Source: Desulfobacterales bacterium
GTDB lineage: Bacteria; Desulfobacterota; Desulfobacteria; Desulfobacterales; UBA2174_A
Direction of reading: 5' to 3'
DNA length: 10,081 nucleotides
NCBI GenBank assembly: GCA_025454075.1
Contig: JALOPD010000122.1
Span: forward strand, 1 to 10,081
Program-made: the position numbers and the translations under genes
The notes under the pieces: model-generated
Told to the model about the DNA's origin: nothing
Database searches by the model: none
Seen by the model: only the letters and a program-made list of their open reading frames with translations
Part shown: one piece after another, positions 199 to 9,864 of the stretch
Position numbering within the stretch: the first letter of the stretch is position 1
Layout: every line of letters begins with the position of its first letter

Positions 199-985
199 TC
201 ATCCGGGCCGGCGCTCCGATCCCGGGCGGTCGAAGCGGTTGAAGAGGCGGATCACCGCCTCGTTCCACCCTCGGCTGCCGGGGACGTCCGCCCGGACGAG
301 GCCGGGCAGTTCGACCGTCTCATAGGTGCCGTCCGGGTGCGGGATCAGGATGGGGATGTCGACGCTTTTCAGCATCGCGATGTCGTTGGCGCTGTCTCCC
401 AATCCGGCCGTGACGATGCGGCCGGCGATGTGGCTGGCGAAAATCTCCGTGCACCAATCTCCCGCCGGCGGTGATCTGCAAGCCCTGTGGTTCGGCGACG
501 GCGGCCAGCTCCTCGATCCGGCGCGGGTCCTCGATGAGAAAGGGCTCCGTAAACTCCCGCATCCGGGCCATGGCGGCCGTTTCCAGCGGCAGCCCGGTGC
601 GAGCCGCGATCTCCGCGACGCTCCAATCTCCGAAGCCCGTCACGCCGAAACGCTCCCTCACCGCAACGACGAACCGCCGGATCTCCGCGTAGGCCGCTCC
701 CAGCGGGACCACGGTATAGGCGCCGTCCCGGACGCCGTTTTCGATCTCGAAATTTCGATACCCCGCCGGAAAGAACAGCGCCGCCCCGTTTTCAGGAATG
801 AACGGCTCCCGGATCTGCAGTTCGGCCTGCAGCCGCTCGACCTCCACTCGGGTCTTGCTGGTCGTGAAGATCAACGGCACCCGCCGGCGCCGGATCAGGT
901 CCAGCGCGGGCCTGGCCGCATCGCAGGCATAGTCGTCGTGGTCGAGCAGGGTGCCGTCCAGATCGGTAAAGATCAGCAGGTTCAT
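199..985 (-). pseudogene. Broken mannosyl-3-phosphoglycerate phosphatase-like gene (HAD family)
   Basis: The intact family removes phosphate from mannosyl-3-phosphoglycerate to give the compatible solute mannosylglycerate in the cytoplasm. The ATG at 983-985 follows a good ribosome binding site (plus-strand acctcc, 995-1000). Residues 6-14 are the HAD motif I FTDLDGTLL with nucleophile D8 and acid D10. Motif II is FTTSKT with S43, and PENGAA at 64-69 is typical of the family. After residue 176 (GLQITAGGR) the frame changes at about positions 440-460. The other frame then carries the end of the protein: W, then ASHIAGRIVTAGLGDSANDI with motif IV, and VDIPILIPHPDGTYETVELP, ending at the TGA at 199-201. 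Joined, it would give about 262 aa. The segment between GGRxW and GDSxND is roughly 15 residues shorter than in E. coli YedP as I recall it, and the motif III lysine region (DKG-like) is absent. The gene is therefore probably non-functional unless the lesion is an assembly error. Confidence 0.75.
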
Positions 986-1337
986 CGTCGTGACACCTCC
1001 GATCCCGGCTCCTGAAAGGCACCGCGGGCGGCGGCGCGGCATGGCCAGGCGATCGAATGGAACATGGCAATCGAATCTCGCTCACACCAGCGGTCAAGCC
1101 GCAGACGGTTGACCACCAGGGCGCGTCCTGCTCGGGGACTGGATTGGACGTTGGCCCGTAGACAGCGGCCAGGACGAGTCATACTATCACACCTGTCGTA
1201 CTAGAAACAGACGCGCTTCCATGGCTGCCGGCGGGCACTGCCCGATCCGCGGAGAGCTTGCGTCTCCAGTGCGAGCGAATGCAGGCACGCATAGCCGGTC
1301 GGGGATCGCGTCAACATTCAAATAGGGAGGTTTGGCG
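986..1337. other. Intergenic region between the broken phosphatase gene and the lipoprotein gene
   Basis: This 352-base stretch separates two divergent genes. Short open frames cross it, but none has a ribosome binding site or a recognisable product. It holds the ribosome binding site of the minus-strand phosphatase gene (995-1000), a weak sigma-70-like promoter for the plus-strand lipoprotein (1159-1187), and the ribosome binding site gggagg at 1325-1330. I see no tRNA, riboswitch or clear repeat. Confidence 0.5.
1159..1187 (+). promoter_or_regulatory. Candidate sigma-70 promoter for the lipoprotein gene
   Basis: TAGACA at 1159-1164 matches five of six -35 bases. TACTAT at 1182-1187 matches four of six -10 bases, with the ideal 17-base spacer. 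Transcription would start near 1194 and leave an untranslated leader of about 144 bases before the lipoprotein start at 1338. The match is by eye only and the leader is long. Confidence 0.3.
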
Positions 1338-1890: not shown

Positions 1891-3291
1891 TCAGGCGCCG
1901 CCCCCGCCCAGGGCCGCGTAGAGCTTGACCTGGTTGACCAGATGGATCAGCCGGATGGCGATCAGTCCCTGCCGGGCGGAATAAAGTGAGCGCTGTGCAT
2001 CCAGCACGGTGAGGTAGATGTCGATGCCTTTCTGGTAGCGTGCGTTCGCGAGCCGGTAGGTTTCCGCGCTCGCGTCCACGAGGGACTGCTGCGCCGCCAT
2101 CTGCTCGGCCATGGTGCCCCGGCGCGCCAGGGCATCGGCCACTTCCCGGAACGCCGCCTGGATCGCGCCCTCGTATTGGTTCAAGGCGATCTCCTGCTGA
2201 ACCTCGCTGGCATCGAGCGCAGACCAGGTGCGCGGGTCGAAAATCGGCAGCACGGCCTGCGGGGTGACATTCCAGGCGAGCGAACCGGATTTGAGGAGAC
2301 CCGTCAGCTGCTCGCTGGCGGTGCCCACGGCGGTCGTCAGCGCAATCCGCGGAAAAAACGCCGCCCGCGCCGCGCCGATATCGGCGTTGGCGGCCTTGAG
2401 CAGGTTCTCGGCCTGCAGCACGTCCGGGCGCCGCAGCAGGATCTCGGACGTGGCGCCGGCAGAGACGTCCGGCAGCGGGGCGACGGCGCTAAGCCCTGCT
2501 GGCAGCCGGTCGGCCGGAACCGGGGCGCCCACCAGCAGGGTCAGGGCGTTTTCGTCCTTGGCCGCCAGTTCGGTGTAGCGCGCGACGTCCACCCGCGCCG
2601 CGTCCACCCGCGTCTGCACCTGGCGCAGGTCCAGCTCGGGCGCGACGCCGACCTCGAAACGCCGCCGGATCAAATCGTAGGAGGCCTGCTGAGCCTCGAG
2701 CGTGGACCGGGCCAGCTGCAGGTTCTCGCGGTCCGCGGCCAGCGTCAGGTAGACGGCGGCGACTTCGGACACGAGCAGGATCCGGGCACTGCGGCGGGCC
2801 TGGTCCGTGGCGAAGTATTCCTCCAGGGCGCGCCGCTCCAGACTGCGGATGCGGCCGAAGAAGTCGATCTCCCAGGCGGCGATGCCGAGCTCGGCACGGT
2901 AGTGTTCGTAGGTTTCCGACCGCCCCGTACCGGACAGGTCGTGGGGCACCCGCTCCTTGTGGCCGCTGCCGGCCGCATCGACCACCGGCAGCAGCTCGGC
3001 GCGCTGGATGCCGTAGAGGGCGCGCGCCCGCTGGACGTTCAACGCGGCCGCCCGCAGATCGCGGTTGTTCTCCAGCGCCGCCGCGATCAGCGCCTGCAGC
3101 CGATCGTCGGTGAAAAATTCCCGCCAGGGCGTCTCGTCGCCCAGCGGGGCCTCCGGGCCGGCCGTATAGGACGGGCCGCTCGGCCAGGCGGCGGGAACCG
3201 GCGCCGCGGGCCGCGTGTAGTCCGGGATCATGGTGCAGCCGCTCAGACACGCGAGCAGCCCCAGGATGGAAAGCAGTGTTTTTCGTCGCAT
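1891..3291 (-). CDS. Outer-membrane efflux channel lipoprotein (OprM/NodT-type TolC-like factor)
   Basis: This 466-aa protein is the outer-membrane exit duct of the tripartite pump and would act as a trimer reaching through the periplasm. The signal peptide ends in the lipobox LSGC with C19. The next features are the characteristic early PDYTRPAAPVPAAW segment and two homologous halves. The first has WEIDFFGRIRSLERRALEEY at 140-159, the second RRPDVLQAENLL at 287-298 and FFPRI at 312-316. The C-terminus (ARYQKGIDIYLTVLDAQRSL, 417-436) is also typical. Length is normal for the family. The ATG lies one base after the TGA of the pump gene (TGA-G-ATG), with a GGGAG about ten bases upstream inside the pump's end, so translation is probably coupled. 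It is the last gene of the operon. Substrate cannot be read from this subunit. Confidence 0.95.
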   Translation of the reverse strand: MRRKTLLSILGLLACLSGCTMIPDYTRPAAPVPAAWPSGPSYTAGPEAPLGDETPWREFFTDDRLQALIAAALENNRDLRAAALNVQRARALYGIQRAELLPVVDAAGSGHKERVPHDLSGTGRSETYEHYRAELGIAAWEIDFFGRIRSLERRALEEYFATDQARRSARILLVSEVAAVYLTLAADRENLQLARSTLEAQQASYDLIRRRFEVGVAPELDLRQVQTRVDAARVDVARYTELAAKDENALTLLVGAPVPADRLPAGLSAVAPLPDVSAGATSEILLRRPDVLQAENLLKAANADIGAARAAFFPRIALTTAVGTASEQLTGLLKSGSLAWNVTPQAVLPIFDPRTWSALDASEVQQEIALNQYEGAIQAAFREVADALARRGTMAEQMAAQQSLVDASAETYRLANARYQKGIDIYLTVLDAQRSLYSARQGLIAIRLIHLVNQVKLYAALGGGGA

Positions 3292-3292
3292 C

Positions 3293-6200
3293 TCAGCGCA
3301 CTCCCGGGGGATCGGTCAGGACCCGGCTCTCCGCCAGCCTCCGACGTGTGCGCTCCCCCTTGAACCGACGGGATACGAGCACAAAAAGCAGCGGGATGTA
3401 GAACAGGTCGATGAAGGTGGCCGAGAGCATGCCGCCGGTAACGGCTGTGCCGATGGCTCTCATCGCGCCCGCGCCCGCGCCGGTGGCCAGCGCCAGCGGC
3501 AGGACCCCGAAGAAAAAGGCCAGCGAGGTCATGATGACCGGCCGCAGCCGCACCCGGGCCGCCGCCAGGGTCGCTTCGACCAGGTTCGCGCCGTTCGCCA
3601 TCCGTTCCCTGGCGAACTGGATGATGAGGATGGCGTTCTTGGTCGTCAGGCCGAGGGTGGTCAGAAAGCCGATCTGGAAATAGACGTCGTTGTGCAGGCC
3701 CCGCGACCAGGTGGCCAGGGCCGCACCGAACACCCCCAGCGGCAGCATCAGCAGGTTCGCGAGCGGGATCGGCCAGCTCTCATAGAGCGCCGCCACGCAC
3801 AGAAAGATCACGAAGACCGAAAAGGCGTACAGCAGGAAGGCCTGCGAACCGGCCATGCGCTCCTGGTAGGAGAGTCCGGTCCACTCGAAGCCGACGCCCT
3901 GAGGCAGCCGCGCGGCCATTTCCTCCATGGCCGCCATCGCCTCGCCGGAGCTGCGGCCCGGCGCCGGTTCGCCCCAGATGTTGACCGCCGGAAAGCCGTT
4001 GTAGCGCTCCAGCCGCGGCGAACCCTGCGTCCAGTGCCCGGATGCGAAGGCGGCAAAAGGCACCATCTTCCCCGCGGTGTTCCGCACGTAGAGCCTTTCC
4101 AGGTCCCGGGGAAGCCTGCGGTACGGCGCGTCCGCCTGGACGTACACCCGCTTGATCCGCCCGGCTTGAATGAAGTCGTTCACATAGGCGCTGCCGAAGG
4201 CCGCTGATAGGGTGTGATGGATGGCGTCGATGGGAACCCCGAAGGCGCCGGCCTTTTCCCAGTCCACGTCGATGCGGTATTCGGGGACGTCCTCCAGGCC
4301 GTTGGGACGGACCTTGGCCAGCCGGGCGTCCTTCGCGGTCATGCCGAGCAGCTGGTTGCGGGCCTCGACCAGTTTTGCATGCCCCAGGCCGCCGCGGTCG
4401 AGCAGCTGGAAGTCGAACCCGGTGCCCACGCCCAGTTCGATCACCGCCGGCGGCGGAAAGGCGAATGCCAGCGCGTTGCGCATCCGGGCAAAGGCTTGCA
4501 TGGCCCGGCCCGCGATGGCCTTCACCCGCAGCTCCGGCCGGTCGCGGAGCTTCCAGTCCTTGAGCTTCACGAACACCATGCCGTTGGTCTGGGCCCTTCC
4601 GGAAAAGCTCACCCCGGAGATCGTCATGCAGGACTCCACCGCGTCCTTCTCGTTCTCCAGGAAATGGCCCCGCACGCCAGCCGCGACCTCCTTCGTCTGC
4701 TCCAGGGTGGCGCCGGTCGGCAGGACGATCTGCACCAGCAGGTTCCCCTGGTCCTCATCGGGCACATAGGCTGTCGGCGTTTGCAGAAACAGAACGCCCA
4801 CCGCCGCCACGATCAGGATGTAGACGGCGAAGTAGCGCAGTTTCCGGGAAAAGGAGCGCTCGACCGTCTGCACGTACCGGTCGCGGACCCGGAAGAAGCT
4901 GCGGTCGAACCACGCGAAGAAAGGACGCAGAAACCGGGCGGAGGCCTCCGCCGGTTCATGTCCGGCCGCCACGGGCCTGAGCAGGGTCGCGCAGAGGACC
5001 GGCGTCAGGATCAGCGCCACGACCACCGAGAGGAGCATCGAGGCGATGATGGTCACCGAGAACTGGCGGTAGATGACGCCGGTCGAGCCGCCGAAAAACG
5101 CCATGGGGCCGAATACGGCCGAGAGGACCAGCCCGATGCCGATCAGCGCGCTCGTGATCTGGTCCATGGACTTGGCCGTGGCCTCCCGGGGCGGGAGCCC
5201 CTCCTCGCTCATGATCCGCTCCACGTTCTCCACCACCACGATGGCATCGTCCACCAGCAGGCCGATGGAGAGCACCATGGCGAACATGGTCAGCATGTTG
5301 ATGGAAAAACCGAAAAACCCGAGCACCGCGAAGGTTCCCAGCAGCACCACCGGTACGGCGATGGTCGGGATCAGGGTAGCGCGGATGTTGCCCATGAAAA
5401 GCCACATGATCAGAAAGACCAGCAGGACGGCCTCGAAGAGCGTCTTGACGACCTCGTCGATCGCCACCCGCACGAAGGGCGTCGTGTCGTAGGGATAGAC
5501 CACCCGCATGCCGGGGGGAAAGAACCGGCTCATCTCCGCCAGTTTGGCTTTTACGGCGTCCGCCGTATCCAGCGCGTTGGCGCCCGCCATCTGGCGGATC
5601 GCCATGCCGGCCGCGGGCTTGCCGTTGAAGAACGCCTCGACATCGTAGGTTTCGGTCCCCAGCTCGGCGCGTCCCACGTCCTGGATGCGCACGATCGAGC
5701 CGTCCGGGTTGACGCGCAGGGGAATGGCGGCAAACTCCGACGGGGTCTTGAGCAGGCTCTGAACGATGACCGAGGCATTCAGGCGCTGGCCTTTTTCAGC
5801 CGGCGTACCGCCGAACTGGCCGGCCGAGACTTCGACGTTGTAGGACCTGAGCGCCGCGACGACATCCTGAACCGTCAGGTGGTAGTCGACCAGGCGGTCC
5901 GGGTTGAGCCAGATGCGCATGGCATACTGGGACCCGAAGTTTTCGACCTCCCCCACGCCCGGCACCCGCGCCAGCACCTTCTCCAGGTTGGATTGGGCAT
6001 AGTCCCGCAGGTCGTTTCCGTCCAGGCTGCCGTCGTCCGATATCAGGCCGACGATCATGAGGTAGTTCTTGGTGGCCTTCCCCACCGTGACCCCCTGGCG
6101 CTGCACCACCTCCGGCAGGCTCGCCATGGCGAGCTGAAGCTTGTTCTGCACCTTGGACCAGGCAAGGTCGGGGTCGGTCCCCGGAGCGAAGGTCAGTTCG

Positions 6201-6472
6201 ATGCGCGCCGCTCCGGCCGAATCGCTGGTGGCCGACAGGTAAAGCATCTTGTCGAGACCGGTCATCTTCTGCTCGATGACCTGCGTCACGCTGTTCTCCA
6301 CGGTCTCGGCCGACGCCCCCGGGTAGAAGGCTTGAATGTAGATCGACGGCGGGGCGATGGGGGGATACTGCGATATGGGCAGATGGTAGATGGCCAGGCC
6401 GCCCGCCGTCATCATGACGATGGCGATCACCCAGGCAAAGACCGGTCGATCCAGGAAGAACTTGGATAACAT
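3293..6472 (-). CDS. RND multidrug efflux pump, inner-membrane proton antiporter (AcrB-like, HAE1 family)
   Basis: This 1059-aa protein is a full-length AcrB-type transporter (AcrB has 1049 aa). It should export hydrophobic or amphiphilic compounds in exchange for protons as a trimer. The N-terminus MLSKFFLDRPVFAWVIAIVM is TM1, and SQYPPIAPPSI (34-44) is the usual following motif. The proton relay is complete: D408 and D409 in GLLVDDAIVVVENVER, K945 in TTKNAILIIQFA, R975 and T982 in RLRPVIMTS. FGSQYAMRIWLNP (179-191) is the conserved pore-domain motif. Aligned by eye with AcrB, the drug pocket phenylalanines are partly replaced: F136 by Y137, F610 by M616 and F615 by V621, while F178, F617 and F628 are kept as F179, F623 and F634. 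The ATG is preceded by GGAG at suitable spacing and lies 17 bases after the adaptor stop. The residue changes hint at a substrate range different from AcrB. Confidence 0.97.
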   Translation of the reverse strand: MLSKFFLDRPVFAWVIAIVMMTAGGLAIYHLPISQYPPIAPPSIYIQAFYPGASAETVENSVTQVIEQKMTGLDKMLYLSATSDSAGAARIELTFAPGTDPDLAWSKVQNKLQLAMASLPEVVQRQGVTVGKATKNYLMIVGLISDDGSLDGNDLRDYAQSNLEKVLARVPGVGEVENFGSQYAMRIWLNPDRLVDYHLTVQDVVAALRSYNVEVSAGQFGGTPAEKGQRLNASVIVQSLLKTPSEFAAIPLRVNPDGSIVRIQDVGRAELGTETYDVEAFFNGKPAAGMAIRQMAGANALDTADAVKAKLAEMSRFFPPGMRVVYPYDTTPFVRVAIDEVVKTLFEAVLLVFLIMWLFMGNIRATLIPTIAVPVVLLGTFAVLGFFGFSINMLTMFAMVLSIGLLVDDAIVVVENVERIMSEEGLPPREATAKSMDQITSALIGIGLVLSAVFGPMAFFGGSTGVIYRQFSVTIIASMLLSVVVALILTPVLCATLLRPVAAGHEPAEASARFLRPFFAWFDRSFFRVRDRYVQTVERSFSRKLRYFAVYILIVAAVGVLFLQTPTAYVPDEDQGNLLVQIVLPTGATLEQTKEVAAGVRGHFLENEKDAVESCMTISGVSFSGRAQTNGMVFVKLKDWKLRDRPELRVKAIAGRAMQAFARMRNALAFAFPPPAVIELGVGTGFDFQLLDRGGLGHAKLVEARNQLLGMTAKDARLAKVRPNGLEDVPEYRIDVDWEKAGAFGVPIDAIHHTLSAAFGSAYVNDFIQAGRIKRVYVQADAPYRRLPRDLERLYVRNTAGKMVPFAAFASGHWTQGSPRLERYNGFPAVNIWGEPAPGRSSGEAMAAMEEMAARLPQGVGFEWTGLSYQERMAGSQAFLLYAFSVFVIFLCVAALYESWPIPLANLLMLPLGVFGAALATWSRGLHNDVYFQIGFLTTLGLTTKNAILIIQFARERMANGANLVEATLAAARVRLRPVIMTSLAFFFGVLPLALATGAGAGAMRAIGTAVTGGMLSATFIDLFYIPLLFVLVSRRFKGERTRRRLAESRVLTDPPGVR

Positions 6473-6489: not shown

Positions 6490-7692
6490 TTACTTGGCGC
6501 CCGCAGGTGTTTTTTCCACGGGCGGCCCTGAAACGGGTTCGAAAGGCACCGCCTTGACCGCGGCGCCCGGCCGCACCCGCTGCATCCCTTCGACGATCAC
6601 GCGATCGCCGGCCTCAAGACCCGATGCGACGAGCCATTGATCGCGGATGGCGCGGTCAAGGACAAGCATGCGTTGCGTCGCCCGGCCGTCGGCATCCACG
6701 GCCAGCGCAAACGGGTTCCCCTTCGGGTCGCGCGCAACGGCCTGCTGCGGAACCAGGACGGCGTTCTCGCTGGTGCCTTCCCGCAGCACCGCGCGGACGA
6801 ACATGCCCGGCAGAAGGGCGGCCTCCGGATTGGGAACCATCACCCGCAGGATGACCGTGCCGGTCGTGGGGTCCACGCTGACCTCGCGGAACTGAAAGGT
6901 CCCTTCCAACGGATACGGCCTGTCGTCTTCCAGGATGAGCTTGACTTTCTTCTGGTTCTTGCCGTTCTGATCCAGGCGCCCGTCCTCCAGACGGCTCCGC
7001 AGCCGCTGCAGTTCGGCGGTGGATTGGGGCACGTCCACGTAAATGGGATCCAGCTGTTGGATGGTCGCCAGCGCCAGGGGCTGGTAGGCCGTCACCAGGG
7101 CGCCGTCGGTCACGCTGGACCGGCCGATGCGGCCGGATATCGGGGCGAGGATCCGGGTGTAGCCGAGGTTGATGCGCGCCGTCGCGACCGATGCCTTGTA
7201 GTATTGGATATCCGCCTCCGCCTGCTTCATGGAGGCGGCGGCGTCGTCATAGTCCTGCTGGCTGACTGCTTTGTCGGCCAGCAGCTCCCGGTAACGGGTG
7301 GCCCTCAAACGGATGGCGGGCAGATTGGCCTCGGCGCGCTCGAGGGCGGCCTTGGCATTGTCGAGCGTCGCCTGAAAGGGGGCGGGGTCGATCTGATAGA
7401 GCACCTCGCCGGCCCTGACGTCGGCGCCTTCCGTAAACAGGCGCTTCAGGATGAGCCCGTTGACCTGCGGCCGGATTTCGGCGATGCGAAAGGCGGATGT
7501 CCGGCCCGGCAATTCAGTGGTCAGCACGACACGCTGGGTCGCGACCGTCAGGGTCGCCACTTCCGGGATCGGCGCCTGCGCTGCCTGCTTCCCATGCCCG
7601 TCTTCGCAGCCGCTCGTCAACAGGCCGGCCACCAAAGCGGTCAGAAGCGCGCCCCACTTTGACAGTTCTGAAACTGGGTTCTTGTATTGCAC
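6490..7692 (-). CDS. RND efflux periplasmic adaptor lipoprotein (AcrA/MexA-like membrane fusion protein)
   Basis: This 400-aa protein links the inner-membrane pump to the outer-membrane channel. A hydrophobic signal peptide ends in LTSGC, with C29 as the probable lipid anchor. The order is typical. The first half of the lipoyl domain is at about 70-105 (RPQVNGLILKRLFTEGADVR, then YQIDPAPF). A coiled-coil hairpin spans about 105-172. The second lipoyl half is at 176-210 (LGYTRILAPISGRIGRS), followed by a beta-barrel at about 215-300 and a membrane-proximal domain ending at GDRVIVEGMQRVRPGAAVK (362-380). The start is GTG (7690-7692), with GAGGA about eight bases upstream; no nearby in-frame ATG fits. 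It begins 13 bases after the 25-aa peptide gene and ends 17 bases before the pump gene, so it belongs to the same operon. Confidence 0.95.
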   Translation of the reverse strand: MQYKNPVSELSKWGALLTALVAGLLTSGCEDGHGKQAAQAPIPEVATLTVATQRVVLTTELPGRTSAFRIAEIRPQVNGLILKRLFTEGADVRAGEVLYQIDPAPFQATLDNAKAALERAEANLPAIRLRATRYRELLADKAVSQQDYDDAAASMKQAEADIQYYKASVATARINLGYTRILAPISGRIGRSSVTDGALVTAYQPLALATIQQLDPIYVDVPQSTAELQRLRSRLEDGRLDQNGKNQKKVKLILEDDRPYPLEGTFQFREVSVDPTTGTVILRVMVPNPEAALLPGMFVRAVLREGTSENAVLVPQQAVARDPKGNPFALAVDADGRATQRMLVLDRAIRDQWLVASGLEAGDRVIVEGMQRVRPGAAVKAVPFEPVSGPPVEKTPAGAK

Positions 7693-7705: not shown

Positions 7706-7783
7706 TTACCGTCTGAAATAGATCATTGCCGCCGCGATGACTAGCGCCATCAGCACAACTGCGATTACCCGGGTAGCACTCAT
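7706..7783 (-). CDS. 25-aa single-span membrane peptide in the efflux operon
   Basis: This very short gene encodes 25 residues: MSATR, a hydrophobic span VIAVVLMALVIAAAMIYF (6-23), and the final pair RR. Basic residues flank both ends, as in a single inner-membrane helix. The ATG at 7781-7783 has an excellent ribosome binding site (aaggaga on the minus strand, 7791-7797) eight bases upstream. It starts 17 bases after the stop of the 105-aa gene and stops 13 bases before the adaptor's GTG start, so it fills an otherwise empty gap in the operon. No family is recognised. E. coli AcrZ (49 aa) is a known small helix that binds AcrB, which makes an accessory role with this pump a reasonable inference, but there is no sequence similarity I can claim. 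The alternative is a leader peptide acting by translational coupling. Confidence 0.7.
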   Translation of the reverse strand: MSATRVIAVVLMALVIAAAMIYFRR

Positions 7784-7800: not shown

Positions 7801-8118
7801 TCATCTGTCCAAGGGGTTTCGTTTTGAATCCCTGTCGCTGTTCGGCGTCACGGGCACCCGCACCCACGAGGCGTGGTTCACGAAGCCGAGTTGGCGCAGA
7901 GAGTCGGCCAGGCAGATGACCTCCGGCAAATTCAATAGCTGACCGTCGGCGTTGGATTCCCAGAAACAAATCGACCAGTCATTGGCGATCGTCGTGCTGT
8001 GGTACAGCTCGATGCGAGTTTGCGGAGACTCCAGAAAGATCCGGTTGAACGCATCGATGACCGATTCTCGGTCGCCCACATCAAACAGCCTGACCTGGAC
8101 CATTTCGATTCGCTGCAT
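7801..8118 (-). CDS. Conserved-looking 105-aa protein of unknown function, first gene of the efflux operon
   Basis: The protein starts MQRIEMVQVRLFDVGDRESV and has no signal peptide or membrane span, so it should be cytoplasmic. By eye the order of secondary structure is strand (EMVQVRLF), helix (DRESVIDAFNRIFLE), strand (RIELYHSTTI), strand (WSICFWES), helix (ICLADSLRQLG), strand (HASWVRVP). This is a beta-alpha-beta-beta-alpha-beta pattern like ferredoxin-fold or dimeric alpha/beta-barrel proteins. The sequence has normal amino-acid composition with several Trp and Cys residues, unlike a shadow frame. The ATG at 8116-8118 follows GGGGGTG at suitable distance and lies 28 bases after the predicted sigma-54 transcript start. 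The next gene begins 17 bases after its stop. I do not recognise the family. A small ligand-binding, regulatory or enzymatic role tied to the exported compound is possible, but this is a guess. Confidence 0.75.
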   Translation of the reverse strand: MQRIEMVQVRLFDVGDRESVIDAFNRIFLESPQTRIELYHSTTIANDWSICFWESNADGQLLNLPEVICLADSLRQLGFVNHASWVRVPVTPNSDRDSKRNPLDR

Positions 8119-8157
8119 TCCAACACCCCCGTCTATGACCGTGTTGACCCGCTGAAT

Positions 8158-8172
8158 GCCTGATCCGTGCCA
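8158..8172 (-). promoter_or_regulatory. Sigma-54 (-24/-12) promoter of the efflux operon
   Basis: The minus strand reads CTGGCACGGATCAGGCA. The -24 part TGGCACG (8166-8172) is identical to consensus. After the four-base spacer, AGGC (8158-8161) keeps the invariant GC at -12, although TT is replaced by AG. Nine of eleven defined bases match, at exact spacing. Transcription would start near 8146, 28 bases before the first gene, leaving room for just the ribosome binding site. The divergent neighbour encodes a sigma-54 activator, which strongly supports the call. A sigma-70-like alternative also exists on the same strand (TTGCCT 8214-8219, 16 bases, TATGAT 8192-8197). Confidence 0.72.
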
Positions 8173-8190
8173 GGATGAAAATAACAATAA

Positions 8191-8203
8191 AATCATATGG
8201 TTG
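8191..8203 (+). promoter_or_regulatory. Candidate IHF binding site
   Basis: AATCATATGGTTG fits the IHF consensus WATCARNNNNTTR at all defined positions but one (T instead of R at the sixth base). It lies about 20-30 bases upstream of the -24 element, between it and the inverted repeats, where IHF bending usually brings a sigma-54 activator to the polymerase. The consensus is loose and the DNA is AT-rich, so a chance match is possible. Confidence 0.35.
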
Positions 8204-8229
8204 TTGACAAGCGAGGCAAAAAGTGTCAA
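8204..8229. repeat. Inverted repeat TTGACA-N14-TGTCAA, candidate operator
   Basis: The two perfect 6-base arms are 8204-8209 and 8224-8229. The centre lies about 70 bases upstream of the predicted operon start. It could be a protein site or one half of an upstream activator sequence. The left arm is also a perfect -35 hexamer for plus-strand transcription, though no good -10 follows at 16-18 bases. Confidence 0.3.
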
Positions 8230-8233
8230 ATAA

Positions 8234-8260
8234 GATAGTTTTTGGCTATCGGATACGATA
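8234..8260. promoter_or_regulatory. Candidate upstream activator sequences (two short inverted repeats)
   Basis: Two inverted repeats overlap here: GATAG-N7-CTATC (8234-8250) and TATCG-GATA-CGATA (8247-8260). Their centres are about 96 and 108 bases upstream of the predicted sigma-54 start, within the usual range for dimeric activator sites. The second touches the TATAAA box of the activator's own presumed promoter, so binding there could also repress the activator gene. Assignment to this activator is inferred from position. Confidence 0.35.
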
Positions 8261-8264
8261 TAAA
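8259..8264 (+). promoter_or_regulatory. Candidate -10 box of the activator gene
   Basis: TATAAA matches five of six -10 bases and would give a start near 8271, just before the ribosome binding site at 8282-8289. No convincing -35 hexamer lies 16-18 bases upstream, so the promoter may be weak or helped by a factor. Confidence 0.3.
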
Positions 8265-8298
8265 TGCTAAATACGACAGTTAAGGAGGGCCTTTGGGC

Positions 8299-9864
8299 AT
8301 GGATGATCTGACCTTCTTCCGCGAGGGGACTCTGCGGATCTGCAGCAGCCTGGACATCGACGAAGCCCTGCAGGAATCGCTCGTTTTCCTGAAACGGTTC
8401 ATGCCGCTCAACTGCATCGAATTCAGCCTGTTCGAGCCCGATATCGGCGGCATCCGGGTGACGGCCCGGGCGGCCGACTTCAAGATGAAACACCCCCTGG
8501 ACACCCCGCTGCTGCTCTCCGAGGAGTCTCAGGCTTACATCAAGTCGCGCACCGGCGAGGTCGTCGTCATCGGCTCGGAATTCTCCCCGCCGCCGGTGCG
8601 CGAGATATCCGCCGCCTTCGGGCTTCGGAGCCTGACCGGTGTGGGCATGCCGCTGCGGATCAAGGGCGAGCGGCTGGGTTTCATCGCCGTGATCTCGAAA
8701 TCGGCGCAGCCGTTCACGCCGGAACACGCGCTGCGCCTGAAGCTGCTCCACGACCCCTTCGCGATCGCCATGTCCAACCATCTGCGCTACAGAGAAGTGC
8801 TCCGTCTTAAAGACCTGCTGGCCGACGACAACCGTTATCTGCACAAGGAGCTTCACCGGCTGTCCGGAGATGAAATCGTCGGCGAGAAGTTCGGGCTGAG
8901 CGCAGTGATGCACATGGTCCAGCAGGTCGCCCCCCGCGACAGCCCGGTCCTGCTCCTGGGGGAAACCGGCGTCGGCAAGGAAGTGGTCGCCAACGCGATT
9001 CACTACTCATCACCGCGCCGCAGCGGTCCCCTGATCAAGGTCAACTGCGGCGCCATCCCCGAAGGGTTGATCGACAGCGAGCTCTTCGGCCACGAAAAAG
9101 GGGCGTTTACGGGGGCCACCGCGATGAAGCGCGGCCGCTTCGAGCGGGCGCACGGCGGGACCATCTTTCTGGACGAGGTGGGCGAGCTTCCGGCGGCGGC
9201 TCAGGTCCGCCTGCTGAGGGTGCTCCAGGAAAAGCAGATCGAACGGGTCGGCGGCGCGGAGCCGGTGCCCGTGGACGTCCGCATCGTCACGGCCACCAAC
9301 CGCGACCTGGAGGGGATGGCCCGGCAGGGCGAATTTCGAAAAGACCTGTGGTACCGGATCAACGTCTTTCCGATCCGGATCCCGCCCCTCCGGGAGCGGA
9401 AGGCCGACATCCCGGCGTTCGTCTACTACTTCATCGGGCGCAAGACGCGCGAGATGAACCTGCGCGCGCAGCCGGTGCTGGCGCAGGGCACGCTCGAACG
9501 GCTTCAGCAGTACGATTGGCCGGGGAACGTCCGCGAGCTGGAAAACGTGGTGGAGAGGGAGTTGATTCGAAGTCAGTCCGACAACGCCGAACAGCCTCTG
9601 CGATTCGAGGAGATCATCGTTGGGCGCTCCCGGAGCCATGCCCCGGACTCCCCCGACCGCGCCGCGCCCCGGGATTTGAACGGCGTTCTGCGCAGCCATC
9701 TCGTGCAGACGCTACGCGCGACCAGAGGCCGGATCCAGGGTCCCGCCGGCGCCGCGGCCCTGCTGGGGATGCACCCGAGCACCCTGCGGCACCGGCTGCG
9801 GAAACTGGGCATTCCGTTCGGGCGGCTGGGCCGGCAGGACGGAGAGGCCGCGGCTACGTCTTGA
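8299..9864 (+). CDS. Sigma-54-dependent transcriptional activator with GAF sensor (FhlA-like)
   Basis: This 521-aa protein is a bacterial enhancer-binding protein that opens sigma-54 promoters using ATP. Residues about 1-160 form a GAF-like sensor; no receiver domain is present, so it probably responds to a bound small molecule rather than a kinase. A short helical linker (about 165-190) leads to a complete AAA+ domain: Walker A GETGVGKE (221-228), the sigma-54 contact loop GAFTGA (268-273), Walker B IFLDE with D292 and E293, sensor I TATNRD (331-336), the arginine-finger region [20 protein letters not shown] (346-365) and sensor [10 protein letters not shown] (407-414). The C-terminus (about 475-503, [20 protein letters not shown]) is a Fis-type DNA-binding helix-turn-helix. 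The ATG at 8299 is chosen over a TTG at 8293 because aaggaggg (8282-8289) fits it better. Its position, divergent from a -24/-12 promoter, makes the efflux operon its most likely target. Confidence 0.95.

What the first reader, a model, noticed from the sequence alone, without database searches (positions are those of the whole stretch)
8119..8298. Complete-looking sigma-54 control region facing an RND efflux operon, next to its own activator gene
The sequence shows a perfect TGGCACG -24 element with GC at -12, an IHF-like site just upstream and inverted repeats at about -70 to -108, all oriented toward the operon. The divergent gene encodes a GAF-AAA+-Fis activator. Drug efflux RND operons are more often controlled by TetR, MarR or MerR repressors or two-component systems, so sigma-54 enhancer control by an adjacent ligand-sensing activator would be an unusual mode of efflux regulation.
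Basis: partly seen in the sequence, partly recalled or inferred. Interest (0 to 1): 0.75.

Follow-up and report, generated by a model that had tools for sequence, protein, structure and literature searches.

The report
Sigma-54 switch for an efflux pump
A bacterial efflux pump operon here appears to be switched on by sigma-54 and an adjacent sensor-activator; the same control region, usually paired with a small unstudied protein, recurs in many relatives of sulfate-reducing bacteria, often in front of pumps but also in front of quite different enzymes.

Summary
On the minus strand, 8172..8157 is TGGCACG-N4-AGGCA (GG-N10-GC; 10 of 12 consensus bases; 0 of 100 shuffles of the 175-bp region reach it). 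Two 14-bp dyads start 88 and 65 bp upstream of it and an IHF-like site 31 bp upstream. Orthologue L174 (activator 77%, RND 88% identical) keeps the gene order and the -24/-12 bases. In 57 other loci the same dyad sits at -65, -88 and -117 (20, 27, 23 sites; 2.0, 2.2, 2.0 expected).

Of 78 loci found with an SML profile, 59 have a divergent sigma-54 activator within 600 bp and 43 an RND pump downstream; others carry acyl-CoA/thiolase, redox or other genes. SML co-varies with the activator's sensor domain more than with the pump.

So: a recurrent sigma-54 control cassette, most often driving RND efflux. Sigma-54-controlled efflux has precedents (EtpR, CbrB): a new variant of a known kind. RpoN dependence, the ligand and SML's role are inferred.

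The parts
8299..9864 (+). GAF-AAA+-Fis sigma-54 activator (bEBP); alternative TTG start 8293
8157..8172 (-). sigma-54 -24/-12 promoter TGGCACG-N4-AGGCA; predicted start near 8146
   Evidence: 10 of 12 consensus, 0 of 100 shuffles; conserved in orthologue L174
8191..8203 (-). IHF-like site CAACCATATGATT, 31 bp upstream of the -24 T
   Evidence: 8 of 9 consensus; 30 of 59 loci, the window among them, have 7 or more of 9 at -32 to -30
8224..8237 (-). enhancer dyad (UAS) TATCTTATTTGACA at -65
   Evidence: 11 of 12 to TAYCNTATTNGRTA; position conserved
8247..8260 (-). enhancer dyad (UAS) TATCGTATCCGATA at -88
   Evidence: 11 of 12; the orthologue has TACCATATTTGGTA at -88, 12 of 12
8265..8278 (-). 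weak third dyad TGTCGTATTTAGCA at -106
   Evidence: 9 of 12; tentative
7801..8118 (-). SML, 105-aa orphan protein, first gene of the operon; predicted ABM-like ferredoxin fold
   Evidence: no Pfam or NCBIfam family; AlphaFold pLDDT 85.2; Foldseek hits SnoaB, LsrG, PA0709
7706..7783 (-). 25-aa single-helix hydrophobic ORF (MSATRV...YFRR), possible small membrane protein
   Evidence: sequence; a 24-aa counterpart in L174; none passed the filter in the other 43 of 45 RND loci
6490..7692 (-). periplasmic adaptor (MFP), MexA/AcrA type, GTG start
   Evidence: TIGR01730 279.9 bits, cut-off 94.9
3293..6472 (-). RND permease, HAE1/AcrB type, 1059 aa
   Evidence: TIGR00915 1554.5 bits, cut-off 940.35; closest solved chains AcrB-like
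1891..3291 (-). outer membrane factor, OprM/NodT type
   Evidence: TIGR01845 367.1 bits, cut-off 210.05

Best explanation
This is one copy of a recurrent sigma-54 control cassette. The activator's GAF domain senses a small molecule; active activator binds two or three dyads 65-117 bp upstream of the -24 element; IHF bends the DNA between; and the AAA+ domain opens the sigma-54 polymerase complex at 8172..8157, transcribing SML, the tiny ORF and the MFP-RND-OMF pump from about 8146. SML, usually the first gene, is most likely the activator's own partner (it binds, converts or buffers the inducer, or contacts the GAF domain as feedback), while the pump is exchangeable cargo that removes the inducing compound or its relatives. 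Shown here by sequence: the sites, their fixed spacing, their conservation, and the activator-SML pairing. Inferred: RpoN and IHF dependence, ligand sensing, and SML's role. The confidence below is for the sigma-54 control; for SML as the activator's partner I would say 0.5.
For: Promoter: a site of at least 9 of 12 upstream of SML in 59 of 83 loci forward against 2 of 83 on the reverse strand; at least 10 of 12 in 47 against 0. Orthologue L174 (activator 77%, SML 57%, MFP 77%, RND 88%, OMF 67% identity) keeps the order and has TGGCACGAATTTGGCT. Enhancers: a motif written from window, L174 and L001, tested on 57 other loci, peaks at -69..-63, -91..-85 and -120..-114 (20, 27, 23 sites; 2.0, 2.2, 2.0 expected) and is near expectation elsewhere. 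IHF: 30 of 59 loci have 7 or more of 9 bases at -32 to -30. Pairing: of 78 loci found with the SML profile, 59 have a divergent activator within 600 bp, and 59 of the 70 with at least 1.5 kb upstream, although such genomes hold at most 31-80 activators each (10 genomes). sigma-54 is present in 20 of 20 SML genomes tested. SML distances follow GAF (r 0.81) more than AAA+ (0.68) or pump (0.39); partial SML~RND given GAF 0.09.
Against: No expression data. The window's own genome is not held, so its rpoN and IHF genes are untested. Its -12 element is imperfect. 24 of 83 loci, and 10 of 45 RND loci, lack a 9 of 12 site in the stretch scanned (at most 600 bp, often less); L001 has only 8 of 12. A sigma-70-like hit faces the operon (9 of 12; 0.5 expected per scan). 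The GAF domain is below Pfam's cut-off in the window protein. The pairing is not absolute: of the 80 activator relatives only 4 loci hold an SML, and two of the six closest (L002, L003) have none in the whole genome; 5 SML genes with over 4 kb upstream held have no activator there. Co-variation of neighbouring genes may reflect joint inheritance and rates: SML~RND is also beyond 1000 permutations, SML-GAF is not tighter than GAF-AAA+ (difference -0.03 to 0.11), and among distant pairs SML-GAF falls to 0.43. The loci are not all independent (60 activator groups at 80% identity among 69).
Confidence: 0.82

Rival explanations
1. The control region is real, but SML is a cargo enzyme or chaperone of the detoxification pathway (for instance acting on the pump's substrate) and has no regulatory role.
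For: Its closest folds include ABM-type enzymes: SnoaB, LsrG. It lies in the activated operon, not with the activator's transcript.
Against: SML stays while cargo changes between RND pumps, acyl-CoA dehydrogenase/thiolase/AMP-ligase sets, FMN reductase and others, and it co-varies with the activator's GAF domain rather than the pump.
Confidence: 0.35
2. The activator mainly controls other genes, and the pump operon is driven by a constitutive or sigma-70-type promoter.
For: One sigma-70-like match faces the operon (TTGCCT-16-TATGAT, 8219..8192). No transcript data exist.
Against: That match is near the number expected by chance (0.5). The sigma-54 site, the IHF-like site and the dyads are conserved in position across loci, and L174 keeps the sigma-54 bases while much of the surrounding DNA has diverged.
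Confidence: 0.08
3. The motifs are chance matches in AT-rich intergenic DNA.
For: A whole-window scan at 3 mismatches is not enriched.
Against: Direction bias 59 against 2 of 83, and fixed phasing in 57 other loci against shuffles; some of those loci are close relatives, but activators of 69 fall into 60 groups at 80% identity.
Confidence: 0.01

Closest known systems
EtpR (EbA324) of Aromatoleum aromaticum EbN1 (PMC4630880; abstract and passages read)
   Same: A sigma-54-dependent activator whose deletion abolishes transcripts of a neighbouring putative solvent-efflux cluster; sigma-54 motifs are reported in front of it.
   Different: It serves a catabolic and an efflux cluster in a betaproteobacterium; the text does not use the word RND (0 occurrences), and the passages read mention no SML-like first gene. 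Its sensor domain was not compared here.
CbrB-activated PP2810-PP2813 of Pseudomonas putida (PMC6296734; passages read)
   Same: An operon that by modelling may be an RND pump, with CbrB, IHF and sigma-N sites.
   Different: CbrB belongs to a global two-component system for carbon limitation, not an adjacent one-component sensor.
XF2093-94 of Xylella fastidiosa (PMC3224663; one passage read)
   Same: Predicted RpoN site upstream of an RND operon.
   Different: Prediction only; no adjacent activator is described in that passage.
DmpR/XylR/NifA/NorR-type enhancer-binding proteins
   Same: Sensor-AAA+-Fis layout, GAFTGA loop; AAA+ fold matches.
   Different: None of the 25 NCBIfam models shown (of 29 matching) reaches its cut-off for the window protein.
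AcrAB-TolC / MexAB-OprM (HAE1 RND pumps)
   Same: All three subunits.
   Different: The classical ones are repressor-controlled (recalled, not tested).
ABM / dimeric alpha-beta barrel proteins (SnoaB, LsrG, PA0709)
   Same: Predicted fold of SML: 24 PDB chains at Foldseek E 0.001 or better, nearly all of this kind, best 3.3e-5, TM about 0.5-0.6.
   Different: No sequence match to the Pfam ABM model for the window protein; 1 of 83 relatives at E 0.007.

Membership tests
sigma-54 (-24/-12) promoters | GG-N10-GC with TGGCAC-type -24 | tested here: met
   8172..8157, 10 of 12
sigma-54 (-24/-12) promoters | upstream enhancer sites for an activator | tested here: met
   phased dyads at -65 and -88; sequence only, binding not shown
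sigma-54 (-24/-12) promoters | transcription requires RpoN and ATP hydrolysis by the activator | not testable with these tools
   needs mutants or in vitro transcription
bacterial enhancer-binding proteins | AAA+ domain with Walker motifs and GAFTGA loop | tested here: met
   PF00158 2e-69; motifs seen in alignment A7
bacterial enhancer-binding proteins | Fis-type DNA-binding domain | tested here: met
   HTH_8 24.3 bits, cut-off 22
GAF-type one-component activators | N-terminal GAF sensor | tested here: inconclusive
   window protein sub-threshold (19.2 against 22.4 bits); 11 of 16 aligned proteins match at E 0.05 or better; the fold listing did not cover this part
HAE1 RND tripartite pumps | MFP + RND permease + OMF in one operon | tested here: met
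   subfamily cut-offs passed by all three; cotranscription inferred from spacing
ABM (Pfam PF03992) proteins | sequence match to the family model | tested here: not met
   none for the window protein; 1 of 83 relatives at E 0.007
dimeric alpha-beta barrel fold | beta-alpha-beta-beta-alpha-beta fold | tested here: met
   AlphaFold model E-H-E-E-H-E, Foldseek and VIA matches; dimerisation not tested

The most novel reading that the evidence does not exclude
SML is the founding member of an unnamed family of ABM-fold co-sensors: made from the very promoter that the activator turns on, it binds or converts the inducer and feeds back on the activator's GAF domain. The activator-SML pair would then be a portable sigma-54 sensing cassette that anaerobes plug in front of efflux pumps, fatty-acid-type degradation genes or redox enzymes.
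Probability: 0.4. Interest if true: 0.75.

Novelty: new variant of a known kind. Interest (0 to 1): 0.62.

Why it matters
RND pumps are best known under repressors (recalled). Here a sizeable group of bacteria appears to keep pumps behind a promoter type that is silent without an activator, with the control elements readable and at fixed spacing. That makes the regulon predictable from sequence (a dyad motif plus spacing), gives a handle on what these environmental pumps are for (the inducer), and exposes an orphan protein family with a testable role in signal handling.

Tried and rejected
Whole-window consensus scan: not informative by itself, since weak -24/-12 matches are as common as chance. 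Own genome: not held, so rpoN/ihf of the host could not be checked; rpoN of 20 SML genomes was checked instead. Tiny ORF as a conserved small pump subunit: counterparts in 2 of 45 RND loci only, so not part of the general module. First tally of RND loci (40 of 83, or 42 with MFP alone) was too low because of a 250-bp gap rule that dropped, among others, L174; it was replaced by a search within 5.5 kb (45 of 83, plus 2 with MFP only). The tree still carries the old labels (L174 as 'other'), so its change count (13) is not used. Sequence search of the SML profile in the PDB found 2 insignificant hits (best E 0.28). SML in the phylum of L006's genome (titled Myxococcales): 2 of 188 genomes, one being that genome itself. 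In the family of G240, 2 of 7 genomes have SML; the second locus (L204) was not examined.

Literature: searches (open-licence papers only) gave the precedents named and nothing on SML. The D. vulgaris sigma-54 regulome paper (PMC4641369, find passages only) has no 'RND' or 'efflux' in its main text; the 2025 sigma-54 survey (PMC12316311, find passages only) has no 'RND' and one 'efflux' (about FtsX-type permeases); in PMC5979394 (find passages only) several RND genes rise in an rpoN mutant, the opposite direction, while one RND outer-membrane lipoprotein gene is listed as positively controlled. PMC2621215, PMC13101534 and PMC10533852 (find passages only) had nothing on this arrangement. Other papers: search listings only. 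Supplements were not read.

Dropped rows: of 73 SML places (two half-length matches and one weak one) were not fetched wide; of 14, 1 at a contig end was not. Class counts therefore cover 70 places in 55 of the 57 genomes with a match. The -24/-12 scan took the region up to the activator or about 400 bp upstream of SML, so sites further off or in front of operons where SML is not first (such as L006, site at 7890) count as misses.

Full report
WHAT IS THERE. On the minus strand of the window, an operon runs SML (8118..7801, 105 aa), a 25-aa hydrophobic ORF (7783..7706), MFP (7692..6490), RND permease (6472..3293) and OMF (3291..1891); the divergent gene (8299..9864, +) is a sigma-54 activator. 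The pump is of the AcrB/MexB (HAE1) type by NCBIfam subfamily cut-offs and closest solved structures. The finding's 8119-8298 is the intergenic region between the SML ATG and the activator ATG.

THE PROMOTER. TGGCACGGATCAGGCA at 8172..8157 faces the operon, 54 bp before the SML start codon; it has a perfect -24, the exact GG-N10-GC spacing and a weak -12. In the whole window a 3-mismatch scan is not enriched (9 against 15.2 expected), but within the 175-bp region 0 of 100 dinucleotide shuffles reach its score.

TEST BY RELATIVES. The activator was used to find loci in genome contigs (the best 80 kept). L004, from a record titled Desulfobacteraceae bacterium, has the same order: activator, TGGCACAGGCTGTGCT, an SML-like protein, MFP, RND, OMF, with the RND only 39% identical. 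L001, L005 and L006 have an SML-like protein but other cargo: an FMN-reductase/flavodoxin-type protein, a molybdopterin oxidoreductase, a protein with sub-threshold hydrolase matches. The other 76 of the 80 loci hold no SML match at E 0.001, L002 and L003 among the six closest included (their whole genomes also have none at E 0.01). I then searched genomes with an SML profile (7 sequences): 57 of 241 genomes of L004's class have a match.

PAIRING. 64 of 83 SML genes (59 of the 78 found by profile) have an activator divergently placed within 600 bp, 6 more at 0.86-3.0 kb; 8 of the 13 without one have under 1.5 kb of upstream sequence held, 5 have over 4 kb and still none. Ten such genomes give 31-80 matches to the activator domain each; that search also rings in all 14 control genomes, so these are upper counts. 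Chance adjacency would be rare. Twenty of 20 SML genomes tested have sigma-54 (control: 4 of 14).

REGULATORY ANATOMY. A -24/-12 site of at least 9 of 12 bases precedes SML in 59 of 83 loci, against 2 of 83 on the opposite strand; at least 10 of 12 in 47 against 0. The window, its orthologue L174 and L001 share dyads; a motif written from these three (TAYCNTATTNGRTA) was tested on the 57 other loci with a site of at least 9 of 12: 110 sites of 9 or more of 12 against 43 expected, of which 20, 27 and 23 lie at -69..-63, -91..-85 and -120..-114 (expected 2.0, 2.2, 2.0), while the other stretches are near expectation. At 10 or more of 12, over all 83 regions, 69 sites against 9.1 expected, with 19 loci at p under 0.05, so most single loci do not show a strong dyad. 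An IHF consensus at 8 or more of 9 occurs within 64 bp upstream of the -24 in 21 of 59 loci (11.2 expected); at 7 or more of 9 in one orientation it peaks at -32 to -30 (30 of 59 loci; 0-4 at other offsets, 0-6 in the other orientation). The window has dyads at -88 and -65 and the IHF-like site at -31.

ORTHOLOGUE. L174 (genome G240): activator 77%, SML 57%, MFP 77%, RND 88%, OMF 67% identity, same order. Its promoter is TGGCACGAATTTGGCT; in the alignment the -24/-12 block stands out from diverged flanks, and its dyads are at -88 (12 of 12) and -66 (9 of 12). One orthologue at this distance was found.

CARGO. 45 of 83 loci carry an RND permease within 5.5 kb downstream of SML (43 of the 78 found by profile); 38 of the 45 have the activator within 600 bp and 35 a site of at least 9 of 12. 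In the class draw that is 37 of 241 genomes, 28 of them with pump, activator and promoter together. Other cargo includes acyl-CoA dehydrogenase, thiolase, AMP-dependent ligase, short-chain dehydrogenase, FMN reductase and an MMPL-type exporter; not every locus was annotated.

WHO DOES SML BELONG TO? In 34 loci with activator, SML and full RND, SML distances correlate with GAF 0.81, AAA+ 0.68, HTH 0.58, RND 0.39, all beyond 1000 permutations; the partial correlation with RND given GAF is 0.09 and with GAF given RND 0.77. In 69 loci: GAF 0.75, AAA+ 0.65, HTH 0.32. The GAF-RND difference holds on resampling (0.28 to 0.54), GAF-AAA+ narrowly (0.05 to 0.21); SML-GAF is not tighter than GAF-AAA+ within the activator itself (-0.03 to 0.11); among distant pairs GAF 0.43, AAA+ 0.24, RND 0.05. 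Joint inheritance of neighbours explains part of this; but since cargo changes while activator and SML stay together, I read SML as the activator's partner. Whether it binds, converts or reports the ligand is open.

COMPARED WITH WHAT IS KNOWN. Sigma-54 control of efflux is in print: EtpR is required for transcripts of a neighbouring putative solvent-efflux cluster in Aromatoleum aromaticum (PMC4630880, abstract and passages); CbrB activates an operon modelled as RND-like, with IHF and sigma-N sites (PMC6296734, passages); Xylella XF2093-94 is predicted (PMC3224663, passage). I found no description of the SML family or of this cassette in ten library searches, which cover open-licence papers only and cannot search by sequence. 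The mechanism class is known; the cassette with its orphan partner is, as far as these searches go, a new variant.

Noticed in passing
window 7706-7783 (-): 25-aa single-helix ORF between SML and the adaptor gene; the orthologue L174 has a 24-aa counterpart in the same place, but the other 43 of 45 RND loci show none by the same filter.
   Followed up: partly
L011 and L018: Acidobacteria/Blastocatellia MAGs in which an activator relative lies in the neighbourhood of an MFP-RND operon and the locus holds no SML match; could be an independent sigma-54/RND link.
   Followed up: partly
L002: Activator relative (49%) divergent from an acyl-CoA dehydrogenase gene with a 10 of 12 sigma-54 site but no SML match in its genome: a possible cassette that lost, or never had, SML.
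   Followed up: partly
L171: SML and activator in front of an MMPL-type exporter instead of a tripartite RND pump.
   Followed up: no
window 320-1042 (-): ORF that reads like a HAD-type mannosyl-3-phosphoglycerate phosphatase N-terminus (recalled, not searched) whose end looks out of frame.
   Followed up: no
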